Positions 42,090-47,019 of a stretch of 62,647 nucleotides of DNA are shown here, piece by piece. The notes beneath the pieces are model-generated. The model was not told where the DNA came from, did not search any database, and saw only the letters and a program-made list of their open reading frames with translations. The first letter of the stretch is position 1. Every line of letters starts with the position of its first letter. A program made the translations under genes and the position numbers. This DNA is from Methanolobus sp. (lineage in GTDB: Archaea > Halobacteriota > Methanosarcinia > Methanosarcinales > Methanosarcinaceae), in contig NZ_JAUXNK010000049.1 in the NCBI RefSeq assembly GCF_030682845.1, forward strand, positions 1-62,647, read 5' to 3'.

Positions 42090-42482
42090 TCACATTAAAG
42101 GCTGCAGTCTCTGGATAATCCTTTGTTTTGGAACCGCACCTATTATCCTGTCTACAAGCTTGCCATTCTTGAAAACCAGCAGTGCCGGTATGCTGGTTAT
42201 AGCATATTTTCCAGCAGTAGATTTATTATTATCGACGTTAAGCTTGCCAAAGACCACCTTTCCCTGAAGTTCGGCTGCCAGTTCGTCGATGATAGGAGAG
42301 ATCATACGGCATGGACCACACCACTGCGCCCAGCAGTCCACAACCGTCAGGTTATATTTTAAGATGAACTCATCAAATACAGCATCTGTGATCTCGACAG
42401 GGCTACCCGGGTGCTCACGTTTCTCAAGCCCCTTCTTCAAACCTTCCATTTTCCTCTGCCTTATCTCATCTATTTCGTCCAT
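42090..42482 (-). CDS. Thioredoxin with N-terminal extension
   Basis: A 130-residue thioredoxin. The active site is WAQWCGPCRMISPIIDELA (about residues 53-70) and the cis-Pro is in ITSIPALLVFKNGK. About 28 charged residues precede the fold (DEIDEIRQRKMEGLKKGLEKRE), more than in a minimal thioredoxin, and may bind a partner. It starts at ATG 42482 with AGGTAGGTAAGC in front. The marker 14 gene follows after 10 bp, suggesting that the thioredoxin reduces that protein or works alongside it. Confidence 0.94.
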   Translation of the reverse strand: MDEIDEIRQRKMEGLKKGLEKREHPGSPVEITDAVFDEFILKYNLTVVDCWAQWCGPCRMISPIIDELAAELQGKVVFGKLNVDNNKSTAGKYAITSIPALLVFKNGKLVDRIIGAVPKQRIIQRLQPLM

Positions 42483-42685: not shown

Positions 42686-42859
42686 ATGGCAGATAAAAAA
42701 GGAAAAACCACTCCTGTAACAGACAGGACCATTTTTGACCAAAAATGCATCACATGCGGGACATGGATGCAGAGGACCGTGAAAGTAGGAAGGAACGGGA
42801 TAGGTTCATTCACATATTTCTGTCCGGAATGCGGCTTGTCTTATACTGTGGATGAATGA
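42686..42859 (+). CDS. Small zinc-ribbon protein, 57 residues
   Basis: The product has CITCGTWMQRT and YFCPECGLSYTVDE, two CxxC pairs about 25 residues apart, forming a zinc ribbon. A TATA-like TTATAATATAAAT at about 42641-42653 predicts a transcript start close to 42676, so ATG 42686 is preferred over an in-frame TTG at 42671. The stop overlaps the start of the Mrr-like nuclease gene (ATGA, 42856-42859), so the two are translationally coupled and likely act together. Confidence 0.8.
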   Translation: MADKKGKTTPVTDRTIFDQKCITCGTWMQRTVKVGRNGIGSFTYFCPECGLSYTVDE

Positions 42860-43881
42860 GCAAAATGGAAAAATGGTCGCCTGGACAACTGCAACAGATA
42901 GAGCCTTATGATTTTGAAAAGCTTCTGGCACAGCTTTTCAGGAAGATGGGATATGCGGTTGAAGAAACACAGTATTCCCATGACAGGGGCATCGACCTAA
43001 TAATAAGGATAGTTCACTTCGGACTCTCGCACTCATGGATAGTGCAGGCAAAAAGATATACAGATCCCGTGGGAGTGAAAGCTGTCAGGGAGTACAGTAG
43101 TCTGAGGTACCGTGACAGGGTCGATGGGGTAATTATAGTTGCTACCTCCAGTTTTACGAGGCAAGCACAGGATGAGGCTGCAGAGCACAACGTCAAACTC
43201 ATAGACGTTAACCTCCTTGTTGAGATGCTGAACCATTACCTCCCCGAAGAGAACAGGGGATTGTGTACAAAAGAAGCAACAGAAAATGGTGATGTACGGA
43301 ACCATGAATCTTTTACTATTATGAGGAGAGGAGAGGAATTGCTTGCTGAGGAGCCTGTAAGCCTTGGAAAAGATAAGATGGTCATGGTGATAACAAGCAA
43401 GAACATCTTTTTCAAAAAGGAGTCAGGCCTGATTTCCAGAAAAGAAAACATAGAGCAGCGTATAGAGATGAAGGACATGGCGGGAGTACATGCTGACCAG
43501 CAGGGCCTCTTCCTTATAGCAGGGCAGAAACGCCTGAAAGTGTATCCTTTGTCCGCAAAGAGAAAAGACAGGATACTGGAACTTCTTGAGAGCCTCAGGC
43601 CAGAGTATGTGCGTGGGGAGCACCTGCTTAAGTCTGCAAGGAAGAACTCGACAATGACAATCCTCACAAATAAGCGACTGGCTCAGATTGGCATTGATAA
43701 CGGGGAAATGGAAGACATTCCGTTATCAAAGATAATAAGTGTTGAAGCAGACGGCGGGTTCTTTAAAAAGGACAGTATCATTGTCTTCGAATCCTCAAAT
43801 GGTGTGGAAAAGCACTTTTTTGAAGTGGACAACGCCCTGGAGTGGAAAGCTGTCATCGAGCAAAAGGTAAGGGTGGGCTGA
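42856..43881 (+). CDS. Mrr-like restriction-endonuclease-fold protein with two PH-like domains
   Basis: A 341-residue protein. The N-terminal ~130 residues are an Mrr_cat-type nuclease: PYDFEKLLAQLFRKMGYAVEETQ, catalytic D in HDRGIDLII, and the Q-x-K motif in WIVQAKRYTDPVG, then VIIVATSSFTRQAQDEA. The catalytic residues appear intact. The remainder has two repeats resembling bacterial PH-like domains, about 150-240 (GEELLAEEPVSLGKDKMVMVITSKNIFFKK) and about 250-340 (GEHLLKSARKNSTMTILTNKRLAQIG). It starts inside the stop of the zinc-ribbon gene. Mrr-type proteins cut modified or foreign DNA; a housekeeping DNA role is also possible. No methylase is nearby. Confidence 0.82.
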   Translation: MSKMEKWSPGQLQQIEPYDFEKLLAQLFRKMGYAVEETQYSHDRGIDLIIRIVHFGLSHSWIVQAKRYTDPVGVKAVREYSSLRYRDRVDGVIIVATSSFTRQAQDEAAEHNVKLIDVNLLVEMLNHYLPEENRGLCTKEATENGDVRNHESFTIMRRGEELLAEEPVSLGKDKMVMVITSKNIFFKKESGLISRKENIEQRIEMKDMAGVHADQQGLFLIAGQKRLKVYPLSAKRKDRILELLESLRPEYVRGEHLLKSARKNSTMTILTNKRLAQIGIDNGEMEDIPLSKIISVEADGGFFKKDSIIVFESSNGVEKHFFEVDNALEWKAVIEQKVRVG

Positions 43882-43976: not shown

Positions 43977-44186
43977 ATGAACCAAGAGACCATAAAGATC
44001 GAAGGGATGATGTGCGGACACTGCCAGATGACAGTGGAAAAAGCAATCAGGGATGTAAAGGGCGTCCAGGACGTGAACGTCAGCCTCGGCGACAAGCAGG
44101 CTGAAGTGTCCTACAATCCCGGGATCACAGACCCTGCAACTATAAGGTCCGCGGTCGTCAAAGCAGGCTATAAGGTCATGGATTAA
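43977..44186 (+). CDS. copZ: Heavy-metal-associated domain copper chaperone (CopZ-like)
   Basis: A 69-residue HMA-domain protein with the metal site [15 protein letters not shown] (MxCxxC) and the usual fold end GYKVMD. It binds Cu(I) and hands it to the ATPase encoded 40 bp downstream. ATG 43977 follows GGGAGTATAAC. Confidence 0.9.
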
Positions 44187-44226
44187 GCAGGGTTTTTGCT
44201 GCGGATATTTTCTTGTGTTATCAGAT

Positions 44227-47019
44227 ATGAATACACATATCAAAGTGTATGGAATGACCTGTATGCACTGTCACAAGCGCGTGACAGATGCAATCATGGC
44301 CATTGAAGGCGTTTCTTCTGTTGATGTCAGTCTTGAGGATGAGAGCGCCACGTTGGAGTTTGACTCCGGGAAGACCAGCCTTGAAGAGATCAGGCAGGCT
44401 GTCACGGATGCTGGATATGAGGTCGGTGCAGAGGAATGCGAACTGGAGGAGCCTGCCGGATTGCCTGAGGCTGCCACGCAGGGACAGACTGCATGCCGGA
44501 TAATCCCTGAAGAAGCGATAGATGAGCAAAAAAGACCTGATCCCGGTGTTTTGGAAGATTCCGTTTTCAGGATATCCGGTATGAAATGCTCGTCATGTGC
44601 TCAGAACATACAGGGCGTTCTGGGCAAACGCGACGGGGTTATCTCAGTTACGGTGAACCTTCCTCTTGAGAGAGCCACTGTAAGGTACGAGCCTGCAAAG
44701 GTCAGCCCGGAGAAGCTTGCAGAGGATATAGAATCCCTTGGCTACCATGTTGTGAAGGATCGTGTGACTCTCAATGTGGGAGGAATGACGTGCGCTTCGT
44801 GTGCCCAGAACGTCGAGAAGGTGCTAAAGAGGCTTGACGGTATCAGTTCGGTCAATGTTAACGTGTCCGTGGGGAAAGCCCGGATCGAGTACAATTCCTC
44901 TGTGGTTTCGGTAGAAGATATGAGAAAGGCCATCGAGGGCATCGGTTACTCGGCTTCCATGCCTGTTGACAGGCAACTTGCCGAGGACCGGGAAAGGAAA
45001 GAAAGGGAAGACGAGATCCGGAGACAGAGGAACAACCTCATAATTTCGGTAGTGATTGCAATCCCTGTCATGTTAGGAAGCCTGAAGCCGGTCTTCCCTG
45101 ATTACTTTGGCTTCGTCCCGGATATCCTGGCCAACAGGAACGTGCTGTTTCTGCTTACAACCATCGTCATGGTATTCCCAGGAAGACAGTTCTTTGAGGG
45201 AACTTACCGGGGCCTGAAGCATGGAGTGACCGACATGAACCTGCTCATCGCCACAGGAACCGGCGCGGCCTACATCATAAGTGTTGCTTCAAGCTACCTG
45301 GACCTGGGGCCCGGCTACCATCATCTGTATTACGATACTGCCGTTATGCTTATTGCGTTCATTGTGCTCGGGAGGTACATGGAGGCCCGCGCCAGGGGCA
45401 GGACATCCGAATCCATCAAGAAGCTCATAGGGCTCCAGGCAAAGACCGCACTCATAATTGTCGACGGGCAGGAAAGAGAAGTGCCTGTTGAGAGCGTCGA
45501 GGTCGATGACATTGTTTTTGTCAGGCCAGGGGAAAAGATACCTGTTGACGGCGTAGTGATCGACGGGACATCAGCAGTTGACGAATCCATGATCACGGGA
45601 GAGAGCATCCCTGTTGACAAGAGCAAAGGGGATGTTGTGATCGGCTCTACATTAAACCGCAGTGGAGCCATGAAACTACGCGCCACCAATGTGGGCGCCG
45701 ATACCGCACTTGCGCGTATAATAGAACTGGTGGAGAACGCACAGAATTCCAAGGCACCCATACAGAGAATTGCAGACGTTGTCGCCGGCCACTTTATACT
45801 CATAGTCCATGTACTGGCACTGGCAGCTTTCTTCTTCTGGTACTTTATCGGATTCGAGAGGTACGACGTGACCCTGAACTCAGGGATAGCGAGCCCCTTC
45901 CTGTTCGCACTGCTCATCTCCATCACGGTGCTTGTGATATCGTGCCCCTGTGCAGTAGGTCTTGCAACCCCTGCGGCCATAATGGTGGGCACAGGCAAGG
46001 GTGCTGAGAACGGTATACTCATCAAGGGCGGAGAAGCACTTGAAAGAACGCTGAAAATAGACACCATTGTCTTTGACAAGACCGGGACGCTCACAAAGGG
46101 AGAGCCTGAGCTTACGGACATAGTTCCTGTTGCAGAGCTCAGCGCCGATGAAGTGCTTGAGATGGCAGCGAGTGCTGAGAAGGGTTCTGAGCATCCGTTG
46201 GGAGAAGCCATCGTCAGGGGTGCAGAGCAACGCAAGCTTAAGTTAAGGGACGTTGAAGGTTTCAGGTCCATTGCCGGTAAAGGTGTGGAAGCGACCATTG
46301 AAGGCAGCAGGATATTGCTTGGGACCCGCAAGCTGATGACAGACAATGGTATTGACATCTCTTCGGTGGAAAAGACAATGGAAAGCCTTGAAGCACAAGG
46401 CAGGACAACCATGATAGCCGCAAGGGACGACAGGTTAGTAGGACTTGTAGCAGTCGCCGACACCCTCAAAGAGAACTCGAAGGAAGCTGTGGAGAAGATA
46501 CGCAGCATGGGCATCGAGGTTGTTATGATCACCGGCGACAACCGCAGGACGGCCGATGCGATTGCATCAAGCATTGGTATCACACGGGTGCTTGCAGAGG
46601 TGCTTCCTGAGGACAAGGCCTCTGAGATCCGCAAACTGCAGGAGGAAGGCCGTATCGTTGCGATGGTGGGTGACGGCATTAACGATGCTCCCGCCCTGAC
46701 CCAGGCAGACATCGGCATAGCCATGGGAGCAGGAACCGATGTTGCCATGGAGTCAGCACAGATAGTGCTCATCAAGAACGATCTGAGAGACGTGATAGCT
46801 TCCATCAGGCTTAGCAGGCTCACAATGAACAAGATCAAGCAGAACCTCTTCTGGGCCTTCGGCTATAATACACTGGGCATACCTCTGGCTGCGGGCCTGC
46901 TTTACCCGGTGGTGAAGACTATTCTCATCAGCCCGGAACTTGCAGCGGCCTTCATGGCACTGAGCTCGGTATCAGTAACCACTAACTCCATGCTGATGAA
47001 GAGAAAGAGAATAAAATAG
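44227..47019 (+). CDS. copA: Copper-translocating P-type ATPase with three HMA domains
   Basis: A 930-residue P1B-type ATPase exporting Cu(I). Three N-terminal HMA domains carry GMTCMHC (residue ~12), GMKCSSC (~120) and GMTCASC (~192), separated by a linker of about 40 residues after the first. About eight membrane helices follow, with the ion motif [13 protein letters not shown] in the sixth; TGES of the actuator, phosphorylation site [16 protein letters not shown] and [10 protein letters not shown] are intact. Many homologs have one or two HMA domains, so three is on the high side. ATG 44227 starts the HMA fold; GTG 44215 is an alternative. It ends in TAG; a small membrane protein gene follows 25 bp later. 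Confidence 0.95.

What the first reader, a model, noticed from the sequence alone, without database searches (positions are those of the whole stretch)
42686..43881. Zinc ribbon coupled to an Mrr-like nuclease with two PH-like domains
The two genes overlap by ATGA. The nuclease has an intact D...QxK site and two repeated C-terminal PH-like domains, a combination I do not know from described restriction systems. No methylase adjoins. The PH-like part could sense a ligand or membrane, which would fit a defence or stress nuclease.
Basis: partly seen in the sequence, partly recalled or inferred. Interest (0 to 1): 0.6.

Follow-up and report, generated by a model that had tools for sequence, protein, structure and literature searches.

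The report
Resident archaeal nuclease with PH tail
This is a DNA-cutting-enzyme gene that a group of methane-producing archaea has inherited vertically at one fixed, ordinary chromosomal spot, with an unusual double protein-docking tail; it is not a mobile defence system, and the small zinc protein beside it is optional.

Summary
The sequence reading is right. A 57-aa protein with two CxxC pairs (42686-42859) overlaps by ATGA a 341-aa protein (42856-43881). The latter has an Mrr-type nuclease domain (Pfam Mrr_cat E=1.1e-31; E21, D47, Q64, K66 invariant in every aligned relative) and two PH-fold domains (AlphaFold model of that part: pLDDT 89, pTM 0.84).

The defence and coupled-pair reading is not supported. 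The nuclease gene is at the same locus in all 27 genus genomes searched: 25 intact, one remnant (G021), one damaged (G009). It recurs across the Methanolobus/Methanococcoides/Methanohalophilus side of Methanosarcinaceae. Its divergent neighbour is almost always a thioredoxin gene followed by methanogenesis marker 14. It is under purifying selection (dN/dS 0.10-0.20 overall, 0.01-0.08 in the nuclease domain in the pairs that give a value). No defence gene adjoins. The zinc-ribbon gene is intact in only 9 of the 27, decaying in two, absent in 16, and stands alone in other families.

Best explanation: a vertically inherited resident nuclease targeted by protein-binding PH domains; substrate and trigger unknown. 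A vertically inherited type IV-like restriction enzyme remains possible. The architecture appears uncommon: new variant of a known kind.

The parts
42686..42859 (+). 57-aa zinc-ribbon protein (two CxxC pairs); optional neighbour of the nuclease
   Evidence: C21, C24, C46, C49, D18, K20, W27, M28 invariant in 21 homologues; no Pfam/NCBIfam family above its cut-off
42856..43881 (+). 341-aa Mrr-type nuclease with two C-terminal PH-fold domains
42889..43230 (+). Mrr_cat nuclease domain (residues 12-125)
   Evidence: PF04471 E=1.1e-31; Foldseek to MspJI 4f0p E=4.5e-6 and AspBHI 4oc8 E=8.7e-5
42916..43053 (+). Putative active site: E21 (42916-42918), D47 (42994-42996), Q64 (43045-43047), K66 (43051-43053)
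   Evidence: invariant in alignments A1 and A2
43333..43596 (+). First PH-fold domain (about residues 160-247)
   Evidence: seven strands plus helix in the models; aligns with the second domain
43612..43875 (+). Second PH-fold domain (about residues 253-340)
   Evidence: bPH_3/bPH_1 matches in relatives, 3dcx E=0.013, models
42090..42482 (-). Thioredoxin, divergent neighbour conserved with the nuclease
   Evidence: TIGR01068 E=4.9e-34; beside the nuclease in 29 of 32 genome-contig loci
40637..42079 (-). Methanogenesis marker 14, core gene, conserved with the nuclease
   Evidence: TIGR03285 E=3.2e-215
43977..47019 (+). CopZ-like and CopA-like genes downstream; conserved in the genus, not in all genera

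Best explanation
A vertically inherited resident nuclease of one branch of Methanosarcinaceae. Shown: an Mrr-family PD-(D/E)xK domain with a conserved putative active site, followed by two PH-fold domains; one fixed core locus; purifying selection on the nuclease domain and, more loosely, on both PH domains; inheritance broadly tracking the flanking core genes. Inferred: it cuts DNA; the tandem PH tail is a protein-interaction or oligomerisation module, not a lipid sensor, and brings the nuclease to a partner (a repair, replication or nucleoid protein, or another copy of itself), so it serves genome maintenance or a standing check on DNA rather than a mobile immune system. The zinc ribbon is an optional, independently occurring small protein, perhaps a DNA-binding accessory.
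For: Found in 27 of 27 genus genomes at the same locus, 25 intact, and in Methanococcoides, Methanohalophilus, Methanomethylovorans, Methanohalobium, Methanosalsum and ANME-3 records. Thioredoxin and marker 14 flank it in 29 of 32 loci. dN/dS of the nuclease domain is 0.01-0.08 in the ten pairs that give a value, PH domains about 0.03-0.39, linker mostly 0.2-1.1. The nuclease tree recovers largely the same groups as the tree of marker 14 plus thioredoxin. E21, D47, Q64, K66 invariant. PH modelling. Both modelled PH domains have a short beta1-beta2 hairpin, the feature from which the PHb structure paper argued against phospholipid binding; that paper describes protein-protein and oligomer contacts instead (PMC2817789). 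No relative of the full architecture in the plasmid, phage and viral-contig searches.
Against: No substrate, partner or phenotype is known. The gene is dispensable: a remnant in G021, damage in G009, an in-frame TAG in some Methanohalophilus, and no match in G255, G265 and the genomes of genera g7 and g11. It evolves about three times faster than marker 14 plus thioredoxin (median end branch 0.16 against 0.056). Mrr_cat is also the domain of many restriction enzymes. Conserved synteny also fits an old resident defence gene.
Confidence: 0.45

Rival explanations
1. A vertically inherited type IV-like (modification-dependent) restriction enzyme: the PH pair replaces the usual SRA, winged-helix or Mrr_N reader, and the enzyme cuts incoming modified DNA.
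For: Mrr_cat with QxK, nearest solved nuclease domains MspJI and AspBHI, which are modification-dependent (PMC3874153). PADLOC models with Mrr domains match the nuclease part. No adjoining DNA methylase, as expected of type IV. Occasional loss is typical of defence genes.
Against: No modification-reader domain recognised. No mobile-element or defence-gene context among the immediate neighbours. Purifying selection on the PH part. PH domains are not known as DNA-modification readers (own knowledge).
Confidence: 0.3
2. A membrane- or ligand-sensing stress nuclease: the PH domains sense a lipid, metal or redox state and release nuclease activity.
For: PH fold. Neighbours are thioredoxin and, in several genera, CopZ/CopA. 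A bacterial PH-domain gene (YozO) is stress-induced (PMC2817789).
Against: Short beta1-beta2 hairpins argue against phospholipid binding (with PMC2817789). The CopZ/CopA linkage is absent in the Methanococcoides vulcani and Methanohalophilus loci.
Confidence: 0.12
3. A chromatin-linked nuclease: the tandem PH tail binds the archaeal histone or another nucleoid protein, as tandem PH domains of Rtt106 and FACT bind histones.
For: Foldseek lists Rtt106, Spt16, Pob3 and SSRP1 tandem-PH domains among its best hits. The genome encodes a histone-fold protein (PF00808 E=4.9e-16).
Against: TM-scores to these are only about 0.4-0.5 with rmsd above 6 A and 7-17% identity. Tandem-PH proteins with other partners (BBS5, IRS-1, Dok7, centaurin) match as well, so the match shows two PH folds, not a shared ligand. 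Histone-fold proteins also occur where the nuclease architecture was not found (Methanosarcina acetivorans control).
Confidence: 0.08

Closest known systems
Mrr_cat family nucleases (PF04471), including E. coli Mrr and the MspJI/AspBHI family
   Same: PD-(D/E)xK fold, D...QxK site; nuclease domain detected at E=1.1e-31 and by structure
   Different: No Mrr_N, SRA-like or other recognised DNA-reading domain; two C-terminal PH folds instead
Bacterial PH domains (PF08000 bPH_1, PF14470 bPH_3; structures 3dcx, 3hsa)
   Same: PH fold; weak sequence similarity of the second domain
   Different: Here two in tandem fused to a nuclease; the characterised PF08000 proteins are small ring-forming proteins (PMC2817789)
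Plasmid-borne Mrr_cat plus Zn_ribbon_Top1 fusions (Staphylococcus, Vibrio, Priestia)
   Same: Mrr nuclease together with a four-cysteine zinc ribbon
   Different: One polypeptide, on plasmids, no PH domain; here the ribbon is a separate, dispensable gene
Phage-encoded 'restriction endonuclease' A0A8S5QJ85 (292 aa, BFVD)
   Same: Foldseek alignment (367 columns) runs over most of the archaeal model, so it may also join an Mrr domain to a PH-like part
   Different: 14% identity, rmsd 23 A; sequence not available here to confirm; viral origin

Membership tests
Mrr_cat nuclease family | Mrr_cat domain with catalytic D and (D/E/Q)xK | tested here: met
   PF04471 E=1.1e-31; D47, Q64, K66 invariant
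Mrr_cat nuclease family | Nuclease activity | not testable with these tools
   No biochemistry available
Type IV modification-dependent restriction | Recognised modification-reading domain (SRA, Mrr_N, winged helix and the like) | tested here: not met
   No such domain in Pfam or NCBIfam scans; C-terminal part is PH fold
Type IV modification-dependent restriction | Cuts modified DNA | not testable with these tools
   Needs an assay
Mobile defence system | Patchy, horizontally moving, in defence islands or on mobile elements | tested here: not met
   27 of 27 genus genomes at one locus, core neighbours, gene tree broadly like the flanking genes
Two-component zinc ribbon plus nuclease system | Both genes kept together | tested here: not met
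   Zinc ribbon intact in 9 of 27 genus genomes; debris in G011, stop in G013, none in 16; stand-alone homologues in other families
PH-domain superfamily | Seven-stranded partly open barrel closed by a C-terminal helix | tested here: met
   Two such units predicted, pLDDT 89; Foldseek hits to PH structures
Lipid-binding PH domains | Extended beta1-beta2 hairpin for phosphoinositide binding | tested here: inconclusive
   Short hairpins in both modelled domains argue against it, but this is a model, not a binding test

The most novel reading that the evidence does not exclude
A chromosomal nuclease steered by a tandem PH reader that recognises an archaeal chromatin or repair protein: a chromatin-docked nuclease whose targeting part resembles eukaryotic tandem-PH histone chaperones.
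Probability: 0.07. Interest if true: 0.6.

Novelty: new variant of a known kind. Interest (0 to 1): 0.27.

Why it matters
If the reading holds, it adds a conserved, vertically inherited Mrr-family nuclease to the near-core gene set of a group of methylotrophic methanogens, and shows Mrr domains used outside mobile restriction systems with PH folds as the targeting part. It also warns against reading every Mrr domain as a defence gene.

Tried and rejected
Fixed zinc ribbon plus nuclease pair: rejected by presence/absence and by a decaying zinc-ribbon gene beside an intact nuclease. Mobile defence gene: rejected by synteny and the gene tree. CopZ/CopA as fixed functional partners: linkage not kept in Methanococcoides vulcani and Methanohalophilus. 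The stop reported in G003 is the zinc-ribbon gene's own stop, not a broken nuclease. Phage, plasmid and viral-contig searches for the PH part or the whole protein gave nothing beyond the Mrr domain. Haloarchaeal and bacterial plasmid Mrr proteins looked at carry no PH domain by Pfam. Literature searches for Mrr with PH found no relevant paper. Phmmer of the single protein against PDB: no match.

Full report
Observation. The window lies in a 2.87-Mb genome of Methanolobus type. At 42686-42859 there is a 57-aa protein with two CxxC pairs. Its stop overlaps by ATGA the start of a 341-aa protein at 42856-43881. The latter matches Mrr_cat (PF04471) at E=1.1e-31 over residues 12-125. Its bacterial PH match (bPH_3, E=0.024) is below the curated cut-off.

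Domains. Alignments of 28 and 31 sequences keep E21, D47, Q64 and K66 invariant. AlphaFold with 31 sequences gives pLDDT 79, pTM 0.54 for the whole protein. For residues 153-341 with 17 sequences it gives pLDDT 89, pTM 0.84: two units of seven strands and a C-terminal helix. Among the relatives bPH_3 matches 12 of 31 (best E=2.1e-4) and bPH_1 matches 6. A profile finds the bacterial PH structure 3dcx at E=0.013. The two halves align in register (GE...TNK...I..KDI.G; hhalign E=2.6e-4, probability 43%; nuclease controls 0.16-0.22). Foldseek against PDB lists tandem-PH proteins (BBS5, IRS-1, Dok7, Rtt106, Spt16) and, for the nuclease part, MspJI and AspBHI. The TM-scores of the PH pair to tandem-PH proteins are mostly 0.4-0.6 with rmsd of 5 A or more, so the fold is supported but no particular shared domain arrangement or ligand.

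Distribution. All 27 genomes of the genus match. G021 holds only a frameshifted, shortened remnant at the same locus, and G009 has lost its start and carries a stop near the end. The one stop reported for G003 belongs to the upstream zinc-ribbon gene. Outside the genus the protein is found in Methanococcoides, Methanohalophilus, Methanomethylovorans, Methanohalobium, Methanosalsum and ANME-3 records. In 247 genomes of the phylum the PH profile finds no other full match, only one half match (G198, E=2.3e-4), and none in the listed genomes of genera g7 and g11 (probably Methanosarcina and kin, judged by size) or in G255 and G265. Within G000 it is the only full-length Mrr_cat protein.

Context. 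In 29 of 32 genome-contig loci the divergent neighbour is thioredoxin followed by methanogenesis marker 14. The exceptions are L045 (contig edge), L053 and L062. In Methanolobus the gene is followed by CopZ/CopA, but in Methanococcoides vulcani and Methanohalophilus loci it is not. The further neighbours in the genus include a DfsP-like protein, PolX and a radical-SAM protein. None is a defence gene. Five Methanosarcinaceae genomes in which the nuclease was not found (G027, G032, G034, G035, G036) have marker 14 without this neighbourhood.

Selection and inheritance. Nei-Gojobori dN/dS is 0.10-0.20 for the whole gene in ten pairs (one more pair is saturated). It is 0.01-0.08 for the nuclease domain, about 0.03-0.39 for the PH domains, and mostly 0.2-1.1 in the linker. 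The nuclease tree and the tree of marker 14 plus thioredoxin recover largely the same groups, so inheritance looks vertical; no formal congruence test was run. The nuclease evolves about three times faster than the flanking genes.

The zinc ribbon. Within the genus it is intact in 9 of 27 genomes, carries a stop in G013, is debris beside an intact nuclease in G011, and is missing in 16. Across the wider set it is also missing in Methanomethylovorans, Methanohalobium and Methanosalsum loci. The trees need three to five changes of its presence, of which well supported branches force two or three. Homologues in other families of the order stand beside unrelated genes with no nuclease. Zinc ribbon plus Mrr is otherwise seen as a fusion in plasmid-borne bacterial proteins.

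Mechanism. Shown: a conserved putative nuclease site, two PH folds, one fixed locus, purifying selection. Inferred: DNA cleavage; PH domains as a docking or oligomerisation module. The PHb structure paper argues from the short beta1-beta2 hairpin that bacterial PH domains do not use the phospholipid site and describes protein and oligomer contacts (PMC2817789); both modelled hairpins here are short. A vertically inherited type IV-like enzyme is the main rival: MspJI-type enzymes use the same nuclease domain (PMC3874153), and occasional loss fits it.

Comparison and novelty. It is a member of the Mrr_cat family by domain. It fails the tested markers of a mobile defence system and has no recognised modification reader. 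The Mrr plus tandem PH architecture was not found elsewhere here, except that one phage 'restriction endonuclease' model (A0A8S5QJ85) aligns along most of the model and may be a looser parallel. New variant of a known kind; modest interest.

Noticed in passing
L060 6001-6954; L107 and L108 (Methanohalophilus): An in-frame TAG in the second PH domain at the same place in two Methanohalophilus genomes (L060 and L108 appear to be the same record). In these archaea, some of which use pyrrolysine, it could be read through, or the gene may be decaying.
   Followed up: partly
L110 2267-2962 (G198): A 231-aa archaeal protein joins an N-terminal four-cysteine zinc ribbon to a C-terminal stretch matching the PH profile (E=2.3e-4), without a nuclease.
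   Followed up: partly
L063-L066, L068-L070: In several other families of the order the small zinc-ribbon gene sits downstream of a gene whose product begins like MQCIAIDVGAGTQDILVYD, suggesting a separate role for the ribbon.
   Followed up: partly
L091 1600-2900 (G021): Frameshifted, shortened remnant of the nuclease gene between thioredoxin and CopZ/CopA genes.
   Followed up: yes
G000:C31:20136-20348 (L135): A second, partial Mrr_cat match with an in-frame TGA elsewhere in the genome.
   Followed up: no
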